A stretch of 64,000 nt of DNA from Chitinophaga sancti. Lineage in GTDB: Bacteria > Bacteroidota > Bacteroidia > Chitinophagales > Chitinophagaceae. Below are positions 1 through 9,213 of the stretch, in pieces (the first letter of the stretch is position 1; each line of letters opens with the position of its first letter). The notes beneath the pieces were generated by a model that worked only from the letters and a program-made list of their open reading frames with translations, was not told where the DNA came from and ran no database searches. The stretch spans positions 1,240,001 to 1,304,000 of the forward strand of contig NZ_CP139247.1 in NCBI RefSeq assembly GCF_034087045.1. The letters run 5' to 3'. The position numbers were made by a program, and so were the translations under genes.

Positions 1-1898
1 GTAGACATCGCGAAGCTGAATGCTTTCACCAGTTCTGCACCTGTAATTTGCCTGTGATCAGATAATAAGCGGGTAGCATATCCACCGATCACCGGCGAAG
101 TGTTATTATTATGTGCGATATAAGATAATGTCTGTTGCCATTGTGTAGTGAGATCATCCTGTTGCAATAGGAGGATCGCATCGTTCATATTGTAGAATAA
201 TTCCAGCAGCTGTGCTGCCGCATCTTCTGCAAGACTTGTACAGGCTGCAGGTAAACTGATGCAGATACGGGTAATCATGCTATTGATGATACCTTCTACC
301 AGTGCAGCATCTGTTTTCCGTACGTTACCATATCTGCTGATCTGTACCAGGTTTGGCAATACCGTCATCAGCTGCATCACATCGCCGGTGGCAGCAGCGA
401 GATTATTGATCTGCCGGATTAATAAATCGACGGCAGCATCCAGTTCTGCAGGTATCGCACTTTCCAGTAAGTCGCATACTTCTTTCAGGGTAGTGGCTTC
501 CTGTGTACGATATTTTACATAACTATTGGTGGCTTCTTCTACTGTGTTGCCCCAGCTACCTCTTTCAATGATATCGATAGATAAAGAGGGATCCCATTGC
601 AAACGCCATTGTTCCTTGAATGTACCTTTACCAGATACATCATAACGATCCCCCCATTTAATACCTAAGAGTTCAAGACGATGCAGGAAGATACTTCGTT
701 CCAGGTCGTTTTCTTTTCTAAGATCTAAAGTGTAATCTTTGAAATCGGCTATCTGTGGTAAGCGAAGTTTCTTTTGCAGTTTTTCGATATCAGTCTGCAA
801 TGGCGGACGAGGTACATCGATGGGTACCTCACCAATCTTATCACTGACGATCAAAGATTTCTCGATCAGTTTGATCAGGATGTCTTCACCATTACAGAGT
901 ACACTAAGTGTCGCTTCATTTAGTTCTTCCAATCCTGGTCTTGGTAAACCACGAAGTGATGCTAATGCTGTGGCAAGGCGAACTGCTTCCATTACATGTG
1001 CGACGGAAATATCTTTTTGTTCTTCCCTGAACAGTCTTGCTACGCGAGCCATCCAGCGGATACCATCGTCAGCGGGGTGATTCCAGATATGCTCATACCA
1101 ACCGGGCGAATTGATGCCTGCACCATAACCACTTTTGTAACTCAAACGGTTGTATGTCCAGGGTACCCATGATACCGCTGTTTTTACTTTTGGTAATCCC
1201 TTGAGCAGTTCATTATCATCCTTTGCTTTAGGCATGTGTGTAAGTGCAGGTGCGTGCCATGCACCACATATCACAGCAATCTCTGTGTACATTTCTTTTT
1301 CTGCCTGGCGGATAGTTTTACGCATCCATGCTTCACGCAATTGTTCTTCCCTGTCGTAGGGGAGAGGAAGATCTGTACGCAGGGCATGCATGCCTTCGGT
1401 GATGGCATCGAATACCTGTTCTTCGTCCTGGCGGTATTCGAATTCATGTTCCCACCAGGTTTCTTCTTCTTCAAAACCAGCAGCAGCGGCCAGCCATGCA
1501 ATGGGATTACGCCGGAGTGTTACTGCATCAGGAACAACTACATTATTATTCAGAGAAGAATCAGCTGTGGGTTGATGCCGCAGTTCAAACTGATTCGCCA
1601 TTGGCAGATCCATGAATTTGACAGGGATCTTATTTTGTCTTGCATACAGGATTGCCTGCCACTCCGGAGAAAATTCCGAGAACGGATAGAACACTGCTTT
1701 CTTTGGGTCATCGGGTTGGAATACGAGAATTGCTACCGGTGGTTTCAATTCATCATGTCCCACCCATTCCAGTATACCATCAGCATCTGGCGGGCCTTCT
1801 ACCAGCACGATGTCCGGTTTGATCTTTTCCAGGGCAGCGCGTACTCTCCTGGCAGAACCGGGGCCATGGTGCCGTATGCCCAGTATATGAATTGGCAT
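1..1898 (-). CDS. DUF5682 family protein (partial, C-terminus beyond the left edge)
   Basis: An open frame of 632 codons starts at ATG 1898 and runs off the left edge without a stop, so the C-terminus is missing. The N-terminus (MPIHILGIRHHGPGSAR) followed by KPDIVLVEGPP, and a second Gly-x-x-His site (ICGAWHAP) about 210 residues in, recall the paired GxxH layout and VE motif of the TraB/PrgY/ChaN/EreA-type superfamily; that link is my inference. The family, DUF5682, has no established reaction. It lies 9 bases after the MoxR ATPase gene and is surely co-transcribed with it. In related loci a VWA-domain gene often follows, and it would lie left of this window. The remaining part of the protein is mostly helical and carries no motif I recognise. 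Confidence 0.8.
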   Translation of the reverse strand, partial: MPIHILGIRHHGPGSARRVRAALEKIKPDIVLVEGPPDADGILEWVGHDELKPPVAILVFQPDDPKKAVFYPFSEFSPEWQAILYARQNKIPVKFMDLPMANQFELRHQPTADSSLNNNVVVPDAVTLRRNPIAWLAAAAGFEEEETWWEHEFEYRQDEEQVFDAITEGMHALRTDLPLPYDREEQLREAWMRKTIRQAEKEMYTEIAVICGAWHAPALTHMPKAKDDNELLKGLPKVKTAVSWVPWTYNRLSYKSGYGAGINSPGWYEHIWNHPADDGIRWMARVARLFREEQKDISVAHVMEAVRLATALASLRGLPRPGLEELNEATLSVLCNGEDILIKLIEKSLIVSDKIGEVPIDVPRPPLQTDIEKLQKKLRLPQIADFKDYTLDLRKENDLERSIFLHRLELLGIKWGDRYDVSGKGTFKEQWRLQWDPSLSIDIIERGSWGNTVEEATNSYVKYRTQEATTLKEVCDLLESAIPAELDAAVDLLIRQINNLAAATGDVMQLMTVLPNLVQISRYGNVRKTDAALVEGIINSMITRICISLPAACTSLAEDAAAQLLELFYNMNDAILLLQQDDLTTQWQQTLSYIAHNNNTSPVIGGYATRLLSDHRQITGAELVKAFSFAMS

Positions 1899-1907
1899 AG
1901 TATATAT

Positions 1908-2984
1908 TTACATGTCCCGGAATGCCCGGTAAATATCCTTCCACTCTTCTCTTGTTTTGATGACAGTCTCAAGGTATTCCTGCCATACAATTTTATCCTG
2001 CACGGGATCTTTGACCACAGCACCAATGATACCTGCTGCGATATCTGCTGCTTTGAGCGAACCATCACCAAAGTAAGCAGCCATGGCCAGGCCATTGTTT
2101 ACTACAGAAATTGCTTCGGCAGTGCTGAGGGTACCACTTGGTATTTTGATTTTGGTCTTACCATCGGCAGTGATACCGCTACGCAGTTCGCGGAAGATGG
2201 TTACGATACGACGGATCTCTGTCAGGGCTGGTTTCTCAGCTGGGAGGTCCATTACCTTCTCATAACTTTCTACTCTTCTCCTCACGATGTCGATCTCTTC
2301 TTCCATGTTGTCAGGAACAGGTAGAATAACGGTATTAAAACGGCGTTTTAAGGCACTGGAAAGGTCGTTTACACCTTTATCCCTATTGTTGGCTGTAGCG
2401 ATGATATTAAATCCTTTTTGGGCCATTACTTCTGTATTCAGCTCAGGTACAGGCAGTGTTTTTTCAGAGAGGATGGTGATGAGGGTATCCTGAACATCTG
2501 CACCGATACGGGTCAGCTCTTCGATACGGGCGATCTTACCATCTTTCATTGCACGCATTACCGGAGTTTCAACAATAGCGCCCATGGTGGGGCCTTCTGC
2601 CAGCAGGCTGGCATAGTTCCAGCCATAACGAATGGCTTCTTCACCAGTGCCGGCGGTACCCTGTACGATCAGGGTAGAGTCACCACTGATAGCAGCTGCA
2701 AGATGTTCACTCACCCAACTCTTGGCGGTACCAGGCAGGCCGTATAACAGCAATGCCCTGTCAGTAGTAAGTGTGGCTACTGCGATCTCCATGAGACGGC
2801 GGTTACCAATGTATTTAGGCTGTATTTCAAATCCATTTTTCAGTGTACCTCCCATAAGGTAAGTAACTACGGCTTGTGGAGATAATTTCCACATATAAGG
2901 ACGCTTTTCAGTATCCTGTTTTTGCAGTTCTTCCAGTTCCTGTGCGAACAGTTGTTCCGCGTGTTGACGTAAAATGTTGGACAT
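1908..2984 (-). CDS. MoxR-type AAA+ ATPase
   Basis: This 358-residue AAA+ ATPase has a Walker A loop GLPGTAKS near residue 80, sensor 1 in the stretch IIATANNRD, and an arginine-finger region SSALKRRF. The Walker B site reads RIEE, so the usual Asp of hhhhDE is a Glu, while the catalytic Glu remains. MoxR ATPases act as chaperone-like remodellers that usually work with a VWA-domain partner. Here the ATPase lies 23 bases after the DUF5691 gene and 9 bases before DUF5682, which points to one complex or pathway. Its substrate cannot be read from the sequence. The ATG start at 2984 fits the family length. Confidence 0.9.
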   Translation of the reverse strand: MSNILRQHAEQLFAQELEELQKQDTEKRPYMWKLSPQAVVTYLMGGTLKNGFEIQPKYIGNRRLMEIAVATLTTDRALLLYGLPGTAKSWVSEHLAAAISGDSTLIVQGTAGTGEEAIRYGWNYASLLAEGPTMGAIVETPVMRAMKDGKIARIEELTRIGADVQDTLITILSEKTLPVPELNTEVMAQKGFNIIATANNRDKGVNDLSSALKRRFNTVILPVPDNMEEEIDIVRRRVESYEKVMDLPAEKPALTEIRRIVTIFRELRSGITADGKTKIKIPSGTLSTAEAISVVNNGLAMAAYFGDGSLKAADIAAGIIGAVVKDPVQDKIVWQEYLETVIKTREEWKDIYRAFRDM

Positions 2985-3007
2985 TTTTTATCTGCTTAAA
3001 AAGGTGA

Positions 3008-4483
3008 TCATTTTTTATTGATGAAAGCTTTATTGATGGCTGCCTTGCAGGTCAATAATCTTTTGATGTGTTCAGTCGTATTGTTCCAGGTAGCCTGATA
3101 GGCAGGCAAGTCAGGTGCGAAACTTTCCAGCTCGCCTGCGATTGACAAGGGTATATTCTGTACCTGTTTGTCAAAGAAATTGCGGTTGTACTGGTAAGGG
3201 TTTTTAGCAATCCATTTGAATAGTTCTCTGGTCAGAGGAAGCCCCCATTCATAATCACGTTCGCTGAGGAAGCGGATCAGAAACTGTGGTTCTTTTTCAA
3301 AGAATCTCAGTGCATAGGCTTCCTGTTCGTGAACGGGTAATGCTTCCAGTGCATCTTTGAAAAACTCTTTGCTTTCTTTCAGTATCAGCTGAAGCCATTC
3401 AAGGTCTTTGAAGCGGATGGCGGCTAAACCCAATGCCTGATTAAATTGCTGTGTAAGCTCAGTATTGTTAAAATAAGTAATGACACCTTTCTTATCTGTT
3501 TGCAGATAATTTTCCCACCATACAGGGGGTACATATGTTGTAAGCTGATAGAGAATGAAAGCATCATCGCTCACGCTTTTAGAACTGCTTAATAACTGGA
3601 TACCTGAATCAGCAATCCGCTTATCAGAAGGTAGTTGCAATTCGATGTCCAGCGACTTCTTATTCATCAATCCTTTTTTGGAAGGTGTGATGCTTTGCTG
3701 CAACAACTGCCAGTAAGCCTGAATGATAGCAGACGTGGGGAGTTGTTTGAGTAATGTCCATGTTTCGTCTTTTACTTTAGAGCTTTTGTCAGTGAGCAGT
3801 GTTTCCAGCCAGGGCACATCTTCTTCACCAGCATTGATCTGCAATACTTTCAGAAGTTCGGCTCGGGTAGCAGCGTTTTCCTGTGACCAGGTTTGTTGCA
3901 GCCATTCTCTGGCTTGTGCAGGGTTTTCCTGTCTGATTGAAGACAGTACCTGTTTGCGTTCTTCCAGTGATCCTGTTTGCCAGCGTTCTTCGTTAGTCTC
4001 TGCTTTTTTGAAAGCCCATGCAGGATTGAGTTGGCCGAGCCATTCCCCTCTCTTGCCACAAACGGTGACAGCGATATTTCTCCATTGTTTTTCCCTGATG
4101 GCCATATCCATCAGGGTAGGAATGAATTCAGGAGGCGCCAGTTGTTGTGCTGAAGCACAGGCTTCCATCCAGTAGAGGATGAGTACCTGTAGTCCCATGT
4201 CGATCGCAGTGTGTAATGCCTGCCATGCAGCAGGACTACAATAGGGCAGTACTTCGGCAGGTGCAGGTTCGAGGGTGACACTGCTGTCTTGTAGTGCAGT
4301 GACGCCACTCTGGCGATAGTTGAGCGCAATAGCGGCGAGGTGCAGAAACTGTGTTTCCACATCCAGCGATTTATTTCCCAATACGGTATCAGCTACGGCA
4401 GATAATGCAGGGGGTAGATCGTCTTTGCGCAGTTGCTTTTTGCCTGTACCTAACAGGACGGTGTTAACAATATTATTCCACAT
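3008..4483 (-). CDS. DUF5691 family protein
   Basis: A 491-residue cytosolic protein beginning MWNNIVNTVLLGTGKK, which I recognise as DUF5691-like. I chose ATG 4483; an in-frame ATG at 4522 would overlap the SWIM gene by 23 bases and adds residues not typical of the family. Residues about 190-290 form repeated amphipathic helix pairs (for example ENAATRAELLKVL and SSKVKDETWTLLKQL) that look like HEAT or ARM repeats, so a scaffold role is plausible but inferred. It has no signal peptide, membrane segment or catalytic motif. It sits between the SWIM protein and the MoxR ATPase in a tight operon, and the four genes probably act together. Confidence 0.8.
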   Translation of the reverse strand: MWNNIVNTVLLGTGKKQLRKDDLPPALSAVADTVLGNKSLDVETQFLHLAAIALNYRQSGVTALQDSSVTLEPAPAEVLPYCSPAAWQALHTAIDMGLQVLILYWMEACASAQQLAPPEFIPTLMDMAIREKQWRNIAVTVCGKRGEWLGQLNPAWAFKKAETNEERWQTGSLEERKQVLSSIRQENPAQAREWLQQTWSQENAATRAELLKVLQINAGEEDVPWLETLLTDKSSKVKDETWTLLKQLPTSAIIQAYWQLLQQSITPSKKGLMNKKSLDIELQLPSDKRIADSGIQLLSSSKSVSDDAFILYQLTTYVPPVWWENYLQTDKKGVITYFNNTELTQQFNQALGLAAIRFKDLEWLQLILKESKEFFKDALEALPVHEQEAYALRFFEKEPQFLIRFLSERDYEWGLPLTRELFKWIAKNPYQYNRNFFDKQVQNIPLSIAGELESFAPDLPAYQATWNNTTEHIKRLLTCKAAINKAFINKK

Positions 4484-4499
4484 AAGTTTTGTCCCGCGA

Positions 4500-5795
4500 T
4501 TACAATAGTTTATAAGAGCCATTATGCCATGCGCCTAAAGGTTCGTATTGTTGTTCTTTGCCCAGCAGCGCCATGTTCAATGGCTGACCGCCACTGAGGG
4601 CGAGTAGTTTCCAGATGTTTGCATAGCCTGCTTTCAGGGGCATCAGCCTTTCTTCCTGGTCTTTTAGCCACCATTGCAGATTGTGCTGAACAGGTGTTAA
4701 TTGTTGTACAATATAAGGTCGTTCACTGCGCACAGGCATCTGTTTGTACAGCAAAGTTTCAGTATCTGTGACCTGTGCCCAGCCTTCCATACCTGATACA
4801 GCTGGCAGCGAAATGTTGGAAACAGGATATTTGATAATGGCTCTGAGTGGCGTAGGCGAAGGAAAGTAAACGAGTTCACCCTGTAGTGCAATACCGGGTG
4901 TAATCAATACTTCAGGACGTGTCTGATTTTTAACATAAAACTGAAGTACCAATGCGGATTGCTTACTATGCTGACCATAGAGCCAGTAGCGTTCTGTGAC
5001 CAGGTTTTCTTCTTCATTGATCTGTTTACTGAGCACCAGCCAGGTGTCTTTGATACCGGGTTGTTGCTTCAGGAATTCCTGGTTTTGGGTAAAACCGATC
5101 AGGGCACGGAGTTCCTGTTGTAAAGGTTCATCCAACTCAGTACTTTGGGTATACCCTTGTACCACAAGATAGATGCGCAGGAGCTGATCGAGAAACGCAT
5201 TTTGCCAGCCTTCGCTATAGAAGTTTGTTTCGCCAAGGGCACGTACCATTCCTGCGAGGCCGGCCGCTTGCGCATCGACCATTCTTCGCGCCATATTTTC
5301 CCAATAGGCGTCTCCTTTTTCAGGTATCTGCAACAGGCCATTGCGTACGATATCTTTCATCCAGAGCATCAGTTCTGTGATGCCATCGGCTACTTTTTGC
5401 TGGCGTGCCTGTAATCTTTTTGCCTGCGCAGTTTCGTCTACGGGCTTATCTGTTTTTTCGACTTTCTTTTCAGAGCGTTTGGATAGCCATTCACTCACCC
5501 AGGCAGGGGGTATATTGTCCGTGAAGGTATCTTTTTGCCGGGCATAGAGGAGCATGAGTCCTATACCATGTTTGCAGGGGAATTTTCGACTGGGGCAGCT
5601 GCATTTGAAAGCTACGTTTACGATGTCTACCTGGGTTTGATACGGCTTGCTGCCGCTACCCTGGCATTCCCCCCATAAGGCGTCAGTGTTGGCGCCTTTG
5701 CTTACCCATTTTCCCGGACCTGCCAATGCGGATCCCGCTTTACGGGAAGCGTCGTCCGGGGCTAAGGCGAGTACATGTTCTTCTGTCAGGAGCAA
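4500..5795 (-). CDS. SWIM zinc-finger protein
   Basis: A 431-residue protein whose residues about 63-75 carry the SWIM zinc signature CxCx6CxH (CSCPSRKFPCKH) followed by GIGLMLLY. SWIM domains chelate zinc and are thought to bind DNA or protein. A charged linker rich in Lys and Glu follows at residues about 105-135, then a long helical region without known motifs. The start must be a non-ATG codon: the frame opens with TTG at 5795, an in-frame stop lies 13 bases upstream, and no early Met exists. It is the first gene of the SWIM-DUF5691-MoxR-DUF5682 set. The gap to the upstream small membrane gene is 15 bases, so transcription may begin further up. Confidence 0.87.
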   Translation of the reverse strand: MLLTEEHVLALAPDDASRKAGSALAGPGKWVSKGANTDALWGECQGSGSKPYQTQVDIVNVAFKCSCPSRKFPCKHGIGLMLLYARQKDTFTDNIPPAWVSEWLSKRSEKKVEKTDKPVDETAQAKRLQARQQKVADGITELMLWMKDIVRNGLLQIPEKGDAYWENMARRMVDAQAAGLAGMVRALGETNFYSEGWQNAFLDQLLRIYLVVQGYTQSTELDEPLQQELRALIGFTQNQEFLKQQPGIKDTWLVLSKQINEEENLVTERYWLYGQHSKQSALVLQFYVKNQTRPEVLITPGIALQGELVYFPSPTPLRAIIKYPVSNISLPAVSGMEGWAQVTDTETLLYKQMPVRSERPYIVQQLTPVQHNLQWWLKDQEERLMPLKAGYANIWKLLALSGGQPLNMALLGKEQQYEPLGAWHNGSYKLL

Positions 5796-5810
5796 TGGAG
5801 TAGATATTTA

Positions 5811-6149
5811 TTATACAAAAATGAGCGAATATAACCGGATGTAAATTATAGTGATATACGCCAGCAGGATGACAGCATTCAGTACCAGCAGCCAGTTGTA
5901 ATCAATAACGGCGTATTTCTTTTTGATGACCAGTATGATCAGGGTGAGCAAGCCCACGAAGAGCAGGGCAGGGGCTATCAGGGTCAGTTTATTTGGGATG
6001 ACGAAGTGTGCACCTTCCAGTCTTTTACTCCAGGGTTGTTCGCCTGTGACAAAAGGGAGTGCCCCTACAAATACGATGATGACAAATAAACGGATGGCCG
6101 ATTTTGCTGCAATTTTGCTGATCTTAAGTGCCCTTGTTTCCTTTTCCAT
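5811..6149 (-). CDS. Small membrane protein, function unknown
   Basis: A 112-residue protein with three hydrophobic segments, near residues 17-34, 55-74 and 83-110, separated by short charged loops. The first loop contains a positively charged KRLEG stretch. I do not recognise a family. It lies 20 bases after the CruF-like gene and 15 bases before the SWIM gene on the same strand, so it is part of the run 7084 to 1. Its position does not prove a link with either neighbour. Confidence 0.6.
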   Translation of the reverse strand: MEKETRALKISKIAAKSAIRLFVIIVFVGALPFVTGEQPWSKRLEGAHFVIPNKLTLIAPALLFVGLLTLIILVIKKKYAVIDYNWLLVLNAVILLAYITIIYIRLYSLIFV

Positions 6150-6169
6150 GATTGATTAATTAGTGGTCA

Positions 6170-7084
6170 CTAAGTTCGGGATTTAGTATTTAAAATCAAT
6201 AGCCAATGGATAAGCGTTCCTACTAATAAGCTTAGTACGCTGAGAATGGTCATCCAGGTATTTTCTGCCGCAAAACCACCTATGAATAACCAGCAGAAAA
6301 AGTATATGTGAAACCATGCCGGTACCAGCCAGGTGATGAAGGGTAAGTTCAGTGGTTGTCGTTTCATTTTAATTATCTCAATTGCTGTTAGTGTTGCAAA
6401 GAAAAGGAGGGTGAATACTAGCTTATCTGCGCTCAGGATATTAAAATGATCTTTTAGAAAAAAAGATATGGGGAAAAGGGTGACGTATAAGGCGATTTGT
6501 GAAATGAGAATGGCTAACAGCGGAATGGCTATTTTCCAGATGCGGGTCTTTTCGAGATAGCGGGAAAAGAGGGAGTAGAAAAATACGACGCATAACCAGC
6601 CGTAGAAATTGCCCCAGGGTACGCCGAAGTATTGAGCACTTAAGGCGACGGATGGATTGATGATCGTTTCCCAGTTCCAGTGCCACATGTGGAGGCGATA
6701 TGCGACTACATCCATGCTCCAGTCGATGCTTAAAGCGAGGAGGGCTTCCATGGCGGCGGCAGGCCAGAGGCGCATGTTCATGCTTTCGGTGATCAGACGG
6801 GAAGTGTACATGATGATACCCCAGCCGGCTCCTATGCCTACGGGGATGTCGCCGATCATGAGGAGGAAGTGGCCGTATCTGTAACCGGCATTGGCTTTTA
6901 CGTTTACGTATTCGAGGAGGAGGCCGAAACCAAAGCCGCCTAATAAATAGGCGAGTTTAGAGATACCTTGTTTCCATGCGTAGTAGAGGCATCCTAAAAA
7001 AAGAATGTACATGCATATTTCGGTGAGGGGATAGCAGATAGCTGGAGGATAGCCGTAAGGCATATCGGCAAATGGACGATTCAT
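6170..7084 (-). CDS. Carotenoid biosynthesis membrane protein (CruF/DUF422-like)
   Basis: This 304-residue integral membrane protein has about eight hydrophobic segments. Residues about 118-165 hold the pattern IDWSMDVVAYRLHMWHW followed by YFGVPWGNFYGW, which matches the carotenoid biosynthesis family that includes the carotenoid hydratase CruF. That family acts on carotenoid end groups in the membrane. No other carotenoid gene (phytoene synthase, desaturase, cyclase) is in the window, so the substrate is unknown. It heads the minus-strand run leading into the SWIM-MoxR genes. The ATG at 7084 is well supported by family length. Confidence 0.72.
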   Translation of the reverse strand: MNRPFADMPYGYPPAICYPLTEICMYILFLGCLYYAWKQGISKLAYLLGGFGFGLLLEYVNVKANAGYRYGHFLLMIGDIPVGIGAGWGIIMYTSRLITESMNMRLWPAAAMEALLALSIDWSMDVVAYRLHMWHWNWETIINPSVALSAQYFGVPWGNFYGWLCVVFFYSLFSRYLEKTRIWKIAIPLLAILISQIALYVTLFPISFFLKDHFNILSADKLVFTLLFFATLTAIEIIKMKRQPLNLPFITWLVPAWFHIYFFCWLFIGGFAAENTWMTILSVLSLLVGTLIHWLLILNTKSRT

Positions 7085-7161
7085 GTATAATTAAGTTTGG
7101 ATTGGTCTGCGGTAGCAGGGAAGATTTTTCGGCTGGATTTGAAATTCCCTGTGGCTGCGTT

Positions 7162-8460
7162 TTATAATTCTTTGTTCATGTAGGATGTCTTTTTTGTATC
7201 GCGGGAAAACACATATACGATCAGGGAGATGAACACACAAATTGTCACATACCAATAATACCAGGGTTCATGACCGATCTTCTTACAATACAGTGCGATG
7301 TATTCAGCAGTACCGCCAAAGATGGCGACTGTCAATGCGTAGGGTAAACCTACACCTAGTGCACGCACCTGAGCAGGGAATAATTCTGCTTTAACCACAG
7401 CATTGATAGAAGTATAGCCACTTACTATTACCAGGGCTGTTAATAATAAAAGGAATGTAGTTGTTTCTGTGCTGGCATGACTTACCGCAGTGAGGATAGG
7501 GACGGTAAATAAGGTACCTGCTACCCCAAATGTGATCAATAAAGGTTTCCTGCCTATCTTATCACTCAGCATACCACAGAGGGGCTGTATGCAGGCATAA
7601 ATGAGCATAAGCCAGAATGTGAGCACAGTAGATCTTTCTTTGGTAAGATGAACGGTATTCACCAGGAACTTCTGCATATAAGTGGTGTAGGTATAAAATG
7701 CCAATGTTCCTCCCATTGTTAATCCTACCACAGTCATAATCGCCCTGGGATGTTCATTGAATAATACTTTCAGGGAACCACGTTTTTCATCGCCTTTTTT
7801 TACAGCAATTGTTTCTTCCATATGGCGGCGGATGATGAGCGCAAAGAGGGAGAGGAAGGCGCCAATTACAAATGGTATACGCCATCCCCAGGCATGCAAT
7901 TGATCGGGGGTGAGAAATACTTTTTGCAATACTAATTGTACCCCGAGTGCGATGAGTTGTCCGCCGATGAGGGTTACGTATTGAAAGCTGGAATAAAAAC
8001 CTCTTTTATCAGGTGTAGATATTTCACTCAGGTAGGTAGCAGAAGTACCATATTCACCACCCACACTCAGACCTTGTAGTAACCGTGCCAGCAATAATAA
8101 TATGGGGGAAAATAAACCAGTAGTCTGATACGTAGGAGCGACTGCAATCATGAGGCTACCCAGTGACATGAGCAATACTGACAATGTCATCGCAGTTTTC
8201 CGACCCGTACGATCAGCAATCGTTCCAAAGAGCCAGCCACCTACCGGGCGCATGAGAAAACCAACTGCGAAGATGGCTGCTGTATCCAGTAGCTGAGCAG
8301 TAGGATTTCCTTTGGGAAAAAAGGACGGAGCAAAGTAAATTGCAAATGCAGCATAGGCATACCAGTCATACCATTCTACGAGGTTGCCGACAGAACCGGT
8401 GAAGATGGCCCTGATACGAAGTAGTGTGGTCATTGATCCTTTGTGCGGGTCGATATTCAT
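7162..8460 (-). CDS. kgtP: MFS transporter of the metabolite:H+ symporter family, KgtP-like
   Basis: A 432-residue, 12-segment transporter closely resembling E. coli KgtP, the alpha-ketoglutarate:H+ symporter. Diagnostic stretches are SVGNLVEWYDWYAYAAFAI near the N-terminus, FLMRPVGGWLFG, the MFS loop DRTGRK, LLQGLSVGGEYGTSATYLSE in the middle, and DKIGRKP in the second half. It probably imports alpha-ketoglutarate or a related dicarboxylate with protons. It is transcribed away from rpiA and separated from it by 78 bases. Substrate assignment is by overall likeness; other symporters of this family carry proline, shikimate or citrate. Confidence 0.83.
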   Translation of the reverse strand: MNIDPHKGSMTTLLRIRAIFTGSVGNLVEWYDWYAYAAFAIYFAPSFFPKGNPTAQLLDTAAIFAVGFLMRPVGGWLFGTIADRTGRKTAMTLSVLLMSLGSLMIAVAPTYQTTGLFSPILLLLARLLQGLSVGGEYGTSATYLSEISTPDKRGFYSSFQYVTLIGGQLIALGVQLVLQKVFLTPDQLHAWGWRIPFVIGAFLSLFALIIRRHMEETIAVKKGDEKRGSLKVLFNEHPRAIMTVVGLTMGGTLAFYTYTTYMQKFLVNTVHLTKERSTVLTFWLMLIYACIQPLCGMLSDKIGRKPLLITFGVAGTLFTVPILTAVSHASTETTTFLLLLTALVIVSGYTSINAVVKAELFPAQVRALGVGLPYALTVAIFGGTAEYIALYCKKIGHEPWYYWYVTICVFISLIVYVFSRDTKKTSYMNKEL

Positions 8461-8538
8461 AATGTGGTGTAAGGTGGATCGTAAAAATAAGGCTTATATT
8501 GCTGTACACTAGCATTAAATTTCAAAAGAGTCATATAC

Positions 8539-9213
8539 ATGGATGCAATCACAAAAGCAAAGAAAGCCGCTGGCGAAAAGGCCGCTGCTTTGGTACAACC
8601 AGGTATGCTGGTAGGCTTGGGTACAGGATCTACTGCATACTGGGCGATTGAAAAGATCGGTCAGATGGTGAAGGAAGGATTGAATATCCAGGCAGTGGCT
8701 ACCTCCATTGCCTCGGAAAAACAGGCCATCAAACTGGGCATACCGATCACTTCATTCAGCGAAATACAGACATTGGATCTGGATATAGATGGGGCAGATG
8801 AAATCAGTGAAGAAGGACAGCTGATAAAAGGTGGCGGTGGTTCCCTGCTCAGAGAAAAGATTGTGGCGCTGGCCAGCAGAAGACGTGTGATCGTAGGTGA
8901 TGAAAGAAAATTTGTAAAGACGCTTGGAAAGTTTCCATTACCAATAGAAGTCGTACCTTTTGGCTGGGAGCTGGTATTCAAAACACTGCAGGCACTGCAG
9001 GGAAATCCATCTCTCAGAACGAAAGACGATCAGCCTTATATTACGGACAACAGTAATTACATCATCGATTGTTCATTTGGCGTAATCCGTGAACCGGAGC
9101 TGCTGCATCAACAATTAAAAGCGCTTACGGGCGTTGTAGAGACAGGCCTGTTCCTGAATCTAAAGCCCACTGTGATAATTGCCTATGAAAACGGAGATGT
9201 AAAAACCATCTAA
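8539..9213 (+). CDS. rpiA: Ribose-5-phosphate isomerase A
   Basis: A 224-residue cytosolic enzyme that interconverts ribose 5-phosphate and ribulose 5-phosphate in the pentose phosphate pathway. The phosphate-binding GLGTGSTA near residue 28, DLDIDGADE near residue 83 and the catalytic loop KGGGGSLLREKI near residue 97 are all present. Length matches the family. It is followed after 41 bases by the ICMT-like gene, and the genes up to 11036 may form a loose operon. No strong Shine-Dalgarno is visible, as is common in this phylum. Confidence 0.97.
   Translation: MDAITKAKKAAGEKAAALVQPGMLVGLGTGSTAYWAIEKIGQMVKEGLNIQAVATSIASEKQAIKLGIPITSFSEIQTLDLDIDGADEISEEGQLIKGGGGSLLREKIVALASRRRVIVGDERKFVKTLGKFPLPIEVVPFGWELVFKTLQALQGNPSLRTKDDQPYITDNSNYIIDCSFGVIREPELLHQQLKALTGVVETGLFLNLKPTVIIAYENGDVKTI

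What the first reader, a model, noticed from the sequence alone, without database searches (positions are those of the whole stretch)
1..5795. Four-gene SWIM / DUF5691 / MoxR AAA+ / DUF5682 operon, a candidate uncharacterised ATPase system
Seen: four genes in one direction with gaps of 16, 24 and 9 bases, encoding a zinc-binding SWIM protein, a HEAT-like scaffold, a MoxR ATPase and a large DUF5682 protein. Known: MoxR ATPases usually work with VWA-domain proteins, and several MoxR-VWA sets are suspected conflict or quality-control systems. Inference: DUF5691 and SWIM would select a substrate or nucleic acid, the ATPase would remodel it, and DUF5682 would be the effector. No function is established for this combination to my knowledge. 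The VWA partner should lie left of position 1.
Basis: partly seen in the sequence, partly recalled or inferred. Interest (0 to 1): 0.75.

Follow-up and report, generated by a model that had tools for sequence, protein, structure and literature searches.

The report
Five-gene MoxR–VWA ATPase operon
Five neighbouring genes encode a widespread but almost unstudied ATPase machine, related to E. coli yehLMPQ and apparently to a radiation-induced Deinococcus operon, which gives an uncharacterised bacterial gene set a testable link to the response to DNA damage.

Summary
The four genes exist, and the predicted VWA gene lies directly left of position 1, making a five-gene operon: SWIM, DUF5691, MoxR, DUF5682, VWA. 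All five stand in that order in 61 of 88 loci from seven phyla, and in Deinococcus and Nonomuraea records. It is not a new kind of system: MoxR, DUF5682 and VWA are homologues of E. coli YehL, YehM and YehP, and the MoxR groups with YehL. The same order stands behind a clear RDR motif in D. taeanensis and fits the radiation-induced D. deserti operon ddrTUVWX, 'of unknown function' (PMC5552922). Apparently new: the link between these names, a possible EreA/ChaN/TraB-like domain in DUF5682 (weak to moderate), a DUF5682–VWA fusion in Streptomyces, and DUF4132 as recurrent partner. An anti-phage role is not supported. Best reading: a damage- or stress-linked protein-remodelling machine with unknown client. 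Main rival: cofactor insertion, helped by Fe–S assembly genes near some copies.

The parts
4500..5795 (-). SWIM zinc-finger protein, 431 aa, first of the five genes; C65-x-C67 ... C74-x-H76
   Evidence: Pfam PF04434 E 1.1e-4, above cut-off; the four ligands in 61 of 61 rows aligned at those columns, of 62
3008..4483 (-). DUF5691 protein, 491 aa, HEAT-like
   Evidence: Pfam PF18944 E 4.9e-96; relatives of 491 aa, three with precomputed HEAT_2
1908..2984 (-). MoxR AAA+ ATPase of the YehL subfamily, 358 aa; P-loop GxPGTAK
   Evidence: Pfam AAA_5 7.6e-36; 38% identical to E. coli YehL over 360 positions; groups with YehL in the tree; K88, E155, E156, N199, R214, R215 in 75 of 75
1..1898 (-). DUF5682 protein, first 632 of 740 aa inside the window (it ends outside, at L002:11676, 324 bases before position 0 on the window scale); N-terminal about 220 aa possibly EreA/ChaN/TraB-like. 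The fifth gene of the operon, a CoxE-type VWA protein of 388 aa, lies wholly outside the window at L002:10475-11641 (- strand; window coordinate = L002 coordinate - 12000) and so has no row of its own
   Evidence: DUF5682: Pfam PF18934 1.2e-238, 4.8e-275 whole; 29% identical to E. coli YehM over 518 positions; profile comparison. VWA: Pfam PF05762 1.7e-44; 35% identical to E. coli YehP over 365 positions; MIDAS residues D216 74/74, S218 74/74, S220 75/75, D301 74/74

Best explanation
It is a YehL-subfamily MoxR–VWA remodelling machine with three dedicated partners, of the ddrTUVWX type. Shown: a five-gene operon conserved in order across phyla; homology to YehL, YehM and YehP; conserved ATPase, MIDAS and zinc-ligand residues; a DUF5682–VWA fusion in two Streptomyces records; an RDR motif in front of the D. 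taeanensis copy; and, in print, IrrE-dependent radiation induction of the D. deserti operon. Inferred: the VWA protein couples the MoxR ring to its client; the SWIM and HEAT-like proteins choose the client, perhaps a nucleoprotein or a protein stalled at damaged DNA; ATP hydrolysis remodels or extracts it; the possible EreA/ChaN/TraB-like domain of DUF5682 hydrolyses or holds it. The machine is made under damage-type stress at least in Deinococcus. In the window's own bacterium (Chitinophaga or a close relative) no damage-type box was found, so induction there is unproven.
For: Order conserved in 61 of 88 loci: by record title 37 Bacteroidota, 8 Pseudomonadota, 6 Cyanobacteriota incl. Melainabacteria, 5 Chloroflexota, 3 Verrucomicrobiota, 1 Acidobacteriota, 1 Thermodesulfobacteriota (some lineages shown). 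To D. taeanensis: MoxR 70%, VWA 51%, DUF5682 37%, SWIM 35% identical; DUF5691 aligns over 69 residues only. RDR motif 18 bases before SWIM in L098: 26.4 bits, next independent site 9.0, ten mononucleotide shuffles at most 16.4. PMC5552922: Deide_18730 (SWIM) over 10-fold, 18720, 18710 and 18690 (VWA CoxE-like) over 5-fold induced, IrrE-dependent; named ddrTUVWX, gene and motif in four of seven species. PMC8533742: DUF4132 protein DRA0166 is DdrO-controlled and rises with mitomycin C; DUF4132 accompanies this module in 13 of 88 loci. Fusion: one ORF matches both DUF5682 and VWA in L102 and L165.
Against: No LexA-type or RDR pattern in 26.9 kb upstream of the 88 modules, E. coli included, nor in window 5796-8700, so damage control is seen in Deinococcus only. 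Three of seven Deinococcus species in PMC5552922 Table 4, D. radiodurans among them, lack the operon, so it is not needed for radiation resistance as such. D. deserti sequence was not read here: that Deide_18720-18700 are DUF5691, MoxR and DUF5682 is inferred from order and from D. taeanensis. Deide_18700 is not in the printed table of the 35 most induced genes. The fold assignment of DUF5682 rests on weak scores (HHalign probability under 1%), and an unrelated control family scored as high. Fe–S assembly genes near several copies point to the rival of cofactor insertion. No client, phenotype or biochemistry is known to me.
Confidence: 0.5

Rival explanations
1. Assembly or metal/cofactor-insertion chaperone: like CoxD–CoxE or MoxR, the ATPase and CoxE-type VWA mature one dedicated enzyme, perhaps an Fe–S or molybdoenzyme; DUF5682, DUF5691 and SWIM are client-specific adaptors.
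For: The VWA is CoxE-type. PMC3893208 (introduction passages): MoxR proteins mature specific complexes, CoxD in CO dehydrogenase. Fe–S assembly genes lie near some copies: sufC, sufD, sufS and a SufE-like gene upstream of SWIM on the same strand in L019 (NCBIfam), the homologous set in L020 and L025 and a SufE-like gene in L030 (clusters, layout), a SufT-like gene in L027, divergent sufC and sufD in L052, a NifS gene in L084. The E. coli operon lies beside yehF, yehH and yehI, and PMC8533742 mentions a molybdate link for MolR.
Against: These Fe–S neighbours were seen in 7 of 88 loci, five of them Chitinophagaceae by record title, so shared synteny is likely; none was seen near the window operon in the 19 kb read. 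Radiation induction in Deinococcus does not fit a housekeeping maturation role. PMC8533742 reports that moeA and moeB were not changed on DdrO depletion.
Confidence: 0.28
2. General protein quality-control or envelope-stress chaperone, not tied to DNA; damage induction in Deinococcus is a local wiring.
For: No damage-type box outside Deinococcus; near-universal presence in E. coli; other MoxR proteins have stress-tolerance roles (PMC11432383 and PMC11834572, titles and abstract openings in the listing).
Against: The SWIM finger and the accompanying DUF4132/WGR proteins point to nucleic acid (functions of SWIM and WGR recalled, not tested).
Confidence: 0.3
3. Conflict or abortive-infection system: the MoxR–VWA switch is triggered by invasion and releases a DUF5682 hydrolase that harms the cell or the invader.
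For: MoxR–VWA ternary conflict systems exist (PMC7159879, passages); patchy presence in Bacteroidota (7 of 296 including this genome); 36 plasmid-collection records hold a relative, three of those opened being typed conjugative; accessory genes, once a C5 DNA methylase, stand inside the operon; the window copy lies beside a helicase–nuclease of the PADLOC PDC-S37/Hhe type.
Against: No credible PADLOC match of the five proteins; the only one is a weak IetA hit (4e-4) of the MoxR. Of 114 flanking ORFs scanned (of 181 eligible; 36 loci, all but one Bacteroidota), 16 models matched, each in one to four ORFs; the PDC-S37/Hhe hits are one syntenic Chitinophaga neighbourhood; no background was scanned. 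yehM in 5284 of 5426 E. coli genomes. No relative in two scans of viral contigs. PMC7159879 main text holds no YehL, SWIM or DUF56.
Confidence: 0.12

Closest known systems
Deinococcus deserti ddrTUVWX (Deide_18730-18690), RDR regulon
   Same: Five-gene operon, SWIM first and CoxE-like VWA last (PMC5552922); the D. taeanensis operon has the same five in order, with one extra small ORF, behind an RDR motif
   Different: Deinococcus copies are DdrO/IrrE-controlled; no such motif before the window operon or its other relatives. DUF5691 is very diverged
Escherichia coli yehLMPQ (YehL subfamily of MoxR)
   Same: YehL 38%, YehM 29% (DUF5682 by Pfam), YehP 35% identical to the window proteins; SWIM protein YehQ
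   Different: Order MoxR-DUF5682-VWA-SWIM; longer SWIM protein (614 aa) matching only at the finger; no DUF5691 found; DUF4132 gene yehI beside it
RavA–ViaA
   Same: MoxR ATPase with a VWA partner (PMC3893208, passages)
   Different: RavA falls outside the group in the tree; no SWIM, DUF5691 or DUF5682 annotated within the 12 kb read around ravA
CoxD–CoxE
   Same: MoxR ATPase with a CoxE-type VWA (PF05762)
   Different: Three extra dedicated partners; no CO-dehydrogenase gene among the neighbours scanned
MoxR–vWA ternary conflict systems (VMAP, iSTAND, beta-propeller)
   Same: MoxR plus VWA plus further components (PMC7159879, passages)
   Different: bpMoxR model matches below its cut-off (21 of 27 bits); the third components differ
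EreA/ChaN/TraB-TIKI-like hydrolase superfamily
   Same: DUF5682 N-terminus shares the late REAxM...GxxH region in register with all three families, and the first motif with ChaN
   Different: Not significant by HHalign's own statistics; no structure available

Membership tests
YehL subfamily of MoxR | ATPase groups with YehL rather than RavA or MoxR proper | tested here: met
   32 system MoxRs incl. YehL (chosen from 86 found) form one side of a branch (100/99) against RavA and four other AAA_3/AAA_5 ATPases of this genome; the outgroup branches are long and the tool warns of that
YehL subfamily of MoxR | Linked DUF5682, VWA and SWIM genes, as in E. coli | tested here: met
ddrTUVWX (RDR regulon operon) | Five genes, SWIM to VWA, same order | tested here: met
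   window operon, D. taeanensis L098, printed D. deserti operon; D. deserti sequence not read
ddrTUVWX (RDR regulon operon) | RDR motif upstream | tested here: not met
   present in D. taeanensis; none in up to 300 bases upstream of any of 88 modules incl. the window's, nor in window 5796-8700. The window copy is a homologue, not an RDR-regulon member
EreA/ChaN/TraB-like superfamily (DUF5682 N-terminus) | Profile similarity beyond chance | tested here: inconclusive
   Score reached by 1 of 200 (TraB), 11 of 200 (ChaN), 0 of 198 (Ere) column shuffles, all three at the GxxH region; HHalign P 0.096, 0.11, 0.074. Against: the unrelated VWA control scored 21.3, and with the first, narrower alignment only TraB hit that region
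EreA/ChaN/TraB-like superfamily (DUF5682 N-terminus) | Conserved His/Glu set | tested here: met
   H10 87/87, H11 86/87, E34 87/87, R188 and E189 88/88, H215 88/88; equivalence to Ere catalytic residues is recalled, not tested
EreA/ChaN/TraB-like superfamily (DUF5682 N-terminus) | Same fold | not testable with these tools
   structure prediction switched off; no PDB sequence relative
Anti-phage defence system | Known defence component | tested here: not met
Anti-phage defence system | Defence-island context | tested here: inconclusive
   scattered models in 114 of 181 flanking ORFs, no background scanned
MoxR–vWA–beta-propeller ternary system | bpMoxR domain above cut-off | tested here: not met
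   21 of 27 bits

The most novel reading that the evidence does not exclude
A DNA-damage- or stress-induced ATPase machine that feeds clients to an EreA/ChaN/TraB-like hydrolase (DUF5682), with two interchangeable builds: SWIM–DUF5691–MoxR–DUF5682–VWA, and DUF4132–MoxR–DUF5682–VWA–SWIM as in E. coli yehI/LMPQ. It would be a general, unrecognised branch of bacterial damage response or protein quality control, hidden in the E. coli core genome.
Probability: 0.22. Interest if true: 0.8.

Novelty: new member of a known kind. Interest (0 to 1): 0.56.

Why it matters
One machine appears to be catalogued under three unconnected names (DUF5691/DUF5682 families, E. coli yehLMPQ, Deinococcus ddrTUVWX). 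Joining them gives an uncharacterised, near-universal E. coli operon a testable function, and gives ddrTUVWX a biochemical identity: a MoxR–VWA ATPase with a possible hydrolase-fold partner. The link rests. No paper making it was seen in the listings; these cover open-licence PMC papers, and where more papers matched than were listed only the listed ones were seen.

Tried and rejected
Sequence search of solved structures gave only chance-level hits (E 0.92 and 1.2). Pfam at loose threshold showed no second family above its cut-off in seven DUF5682 proteins.

Defence idea: rejected as the leading reading (91 without a background). The DUF4011 helicase–nuclease to the left (PDC-S37/Hhe-like) was considered as a sixth component and rejected: it is convergent, on the other strand, and among the clustered neighbours seen only in L002, L017, L018 and L024.

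Generality of damage control: tested with four LexA-type patterns and an RDR pattern upstream of 88 modules, 0 matches (motifs of LexA types are recalled), and again over window 5796-8700, because a gene 15 bases upstream of SWIM may move the promoter, 0 matches.

A regular-expression count of Walker A (60 of 75) was discarded: the family P-loop reads GxPGTAK with Ala before Lys, so the canonical pattern must match elsewhere; the conserved-column list of the same call was used.

The phage-collection hit (MT835988, 'UNVERIFIED', 14 kb) was not taken as a phage gene: it carries adjacent MoxR, DUF5682 and VWA and looks like a bacterial contig.

Full report
OBSERVATION. The DUF5691 start was placed at the second start because its close relatives have 491 residues. 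The window lies in an 8.3 Mb one-contig genome; the named nearest relatives of its DUF5682 are from Chitinophaga. Reading left of position 1 (L002) completes DUF5682 to 740 residues and shows, 34 bases on, a 388-residue CoxE-type VWA protein with DQSGS. On the right, a 112-residue protein without a Pfam family ends 15 bases upstream of SWIM on the same strand, preceded by a Caroten_synth-like gene and an MFS transporter; homologues of the 112-residue protein clustered only from L017, L018 and L024, so the transcript may start further upstream in this genus.

CONSERVATION. DUF5682 is in 7 of 296 Bacteroidota genomes sampled, this one included, so it is patchy there. With L002, L004 (E. coli) and six Bacteroidota regions (L011-L016) that makes 88 loci. 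All five families in the order SWIM-DUF5691-MoxR-DUF5682-VWA on one strand occur in 61 of 88 (L067 has DUF5691, and L070 SWIM and VWA, as two ORFs). By record titles these are 37 Bacteroidota, 8 Pseudomonadota, 6 Cyanobacteriota including Melainabacteria, 5 Chloroflexota, 3 Verrucomicrobiota, 1 Acidobacteriota and 1 Thermodesulfobacteriota. The 27 others: 8 with DUF5682 alone (L013, L046, L048, L055, L059, L062, L071, L083), L015 with a VWA on the other strand, E. coli with its own order, and 17 partial sets, some of them cut by contig ends. In the plasmid collection (36 records with a relative) Deinococcus taeanensis (L098), Rhizobium sophoriradicis (L099) and Nonomuraea (L100; its 'plasmid' is 11.9 Mb, so chromosome-like) have all five; Methylosinus (L167) has four and a partial VWA; Fusobacterium (L162) has SWIM, MoxR, DUF5682 and VWA with no DUF5691 detected.

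TWO BUILDS. E. coli K-12 yehL-yehM-yehP-yehQ is MoxR-DUF5682-VWA-SWIM: YehL 38% over 360 positions, YehM 29% over 518, YehP 35% over 365. YehQ matches only at the zinc finger and not DUF5691. The same build, with DUF4132 inside or beside, is in Sinorhizobium (L101), Allorhizobium (L163) and Iodobacter (L164) plasmids. In two Streptomyces records one ORF matches both DUF5682 and VWA, a fusion (L102, L165; L102 annotation). A tree of 37 proteins puts all 32 chosen system MoxRs on one side of a branch (100/99) against RavA and four other AAA_3/AAA_5 ATPases of this genome; the six E. coli-type members form a subgroup (92/100); the window copy lies with other Bacteroidota copies. The window's type is not a clean clade: L016, whose locus shows no SWIM or VWA, branches first and Fusobacterium L162 goes with the E. 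coli type. The tool warns of long outgroup branches. DUF4132 proteins sit beside the module in 13 of 88 loci, including E. coli (Pfam confirmed for four Bacteroidota copies and YehI). In the window's genome the only DUF4132 hit is about 0.9 Mb away.

RESIDUES. MoxR: Lys88 of the P-loop, Glu155-Glu156, Asn199 and Arg214-Arg215 in 75 of 75. VWA: Asp216 74/74, Ser218 74/74, Ser220 75/75, Asp301 74/74. SWIM: Cys65, Cys67, Cys74, His76 in 61 of 61. DUF5682: His10 87/87, His11 86/87, Glu34 87/87, Arg188 and Glu189 88/88, His215 88/88. DUF5691 has four columns at 97% or more, as expected of a scaffold.

DUF5682 FOLD. The N-terminal motifs (GIRHHGPGSA ... VLVEGP ... REAWM ... GAWHAPAL) resemble the EreA/ChaN/TraB-TIKI superfamily; that superfamily and its motifs are recalled. 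Alignments of TraB (21), Ere (8) and ChaN (22) proteins were built. With the first DUF5682 alignment (57 sequences) TraB matched the expected region, Ere and ChaN matched elsewhere. With 69 more diverse sequences, residues 1-240, all three best alignments end at or just beyond the same GxxH; the ChaN one is collinear over 185 columns and also pairs the first motif. HHalign's own P values are 0.096 (TraB), 0.074 (Ere) and 0.11 (ChaN); column-shuffled versions reach the score in 1 of 200, 0 of 198 and 11 of 200. Reversed alignments scored lower in all three, for Ere only slightly (19.8 against 22.1). Of four unrelated controls, MoxR, DUF5691 and SWIM scored lower, but the VWA family scored 21.3, above TraB (19.8) and ChaN (19.4), at neighbouring columns 418-445. 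I take this as weak to moderate support, about 0.6, for an EreA/ChaN-like domain.

FUNCTION IN PRINT. PMC3893208 (introduction passages) lists YehL as one of seven MoxR subfamilies, generally with a VWA cofactor. PMC5552922 (section 17 in full, other passages) reports that the D. deserti operon Deide_18730 to 18690 has an RDR motif, that four of its five genes are among the 35 most radiation-induced in an IrrE-dependent way, that it begins with a SWIM protein and ends with a CoxE-like VWA protein, is of unknown function, and is named ddrTUVWX; four of seven Deinococcus species have it, all with the motif. I checked this in another species: in D. taeanensis the five families stand in order with one extra small ORF, MoxR 70% and VWA 51% identical to the window's, and the best RDR match in the 18.2 kb locus, 26.4 bits, lies 18 bases before the annotated SWIM start, against 9.0 for the next independent site and at most 16.4 in ten shuffles. 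PMC8533742 (passages) reports that a DUF4132 protein and a WGR protein of D. radiodurans are DdrO-controlled and rise with mitomycin C, and mentions a LexA link for MolR. Against a general rule, no RDR or LexA-type pattern precedes any of the 88 modules within 300 bases of the longest ORF, nor lies in window 5796-8700.

FE–S NEIGHBOURS. That is 7 of 88 loci, five of them Chitinophagaceae, so local synteny is likely, but it favours the cofactor rival.

DEFENCE. None of the five proteins gives a credible PADLOC match. I scanned 114 of 181 eligible flanking ORFs (36 of 59 loci, all but one Bacteroidota): 16 models matched, PDC-S37, Hhe, MkoA, MkoC and DrmC in four ORFs each, one MkoA model in three, mad3 in two, the other nine in one each. 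The helicase–nuclease hits belong to a conserved Chitinophaga neighbourhood; the DrmC hits include a phospholipase-D-like protein. No background set was scanned, so this is a description, not an enrichment test. yehM is in 5284 of 5426 E. coli genomes, unlike a typical defence gene. Two scans of viral contigs found no relative.

VERDICT. The finding is real and better than its author could know, but it is a homologue of named, unsolved operons. The best-supported mechanism is a MoxR–VWA remodelling machine, damage-induced at least in Deinococcus, with a client-selecting SWIM/HEAT pair and a possible hydrolase-fold partner. Client, chemistry and role in the window's own bacterium are inferred; cofactor insertion remains a serious rival.

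Noticed in passing
L002:5593-10362 (+), left of the window (window coordinate = L002 coordinate - 12000): Large DUF4011–SF1 helicase–MTES_1575 nuclease–DUF3320 protein, convergent with the operon; strong match to PADLOC PDC-S37 (2049 bits) and Hhe. Same neighbour in L017, L018, L024.
   Followed up: partly
L019, L020, L023, L025, L027, L030, L032, L036 (after VWA); L038, L051, L052 (between DUF5682 and VWA); L085; E. coli L004; plasmids L101, L163, L164: DUF4132 proteins recur beside the module on either side, also in E. coli (yehI), suggesting a sixth, optional component with HEAT-like repeats.
   Followed up: partly
L019, L020, L025, L027, L030, L052, L084, upstream of SWIM: Fe–S cluster assembly genes (SUF set or parts of it; NifS in L084) near the operon.
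   Followed up: partly
L012, L035, L076, L079, L089, L090, L092, L098 (between MoxR and DUF5682); L074 (before MoxR): Extra unrelated genes stand at this junction: a C5 DNA methylase with a neighbour, a cytidylyltransferase-like, DUF6688_C, two-component-like genes (by eye), unknowns; a weak kinase-like match in L074, as if it accepts insertions.
   Followed up: partly
L102:7944-11711 and L165:7908-11717: DUF5682 and VWA appear as one fused ORF in two Streptomyces records.
   Followed up: partly
L169:7986-10278: Hymenobacter radiodurans plasmid copy has DUF5682 annotated as three overlapping pieces, with no VWA gene annotated near it; error or decay not resolved.
   Followed up: no
window 5811-7084: A 112-residue protein without Pfam family and a Caroten_synth-like protein directly upstream on the same strand, close enough to be co-transcribed.
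   Followed up: no
window 1908-2984 and 3008-4483: MoxR is 70% identical between the window's genome and D. taeanensis while DUF5691 aligns over only 69 residues: strongly uneven divergence within one operon.
   Followed up: no
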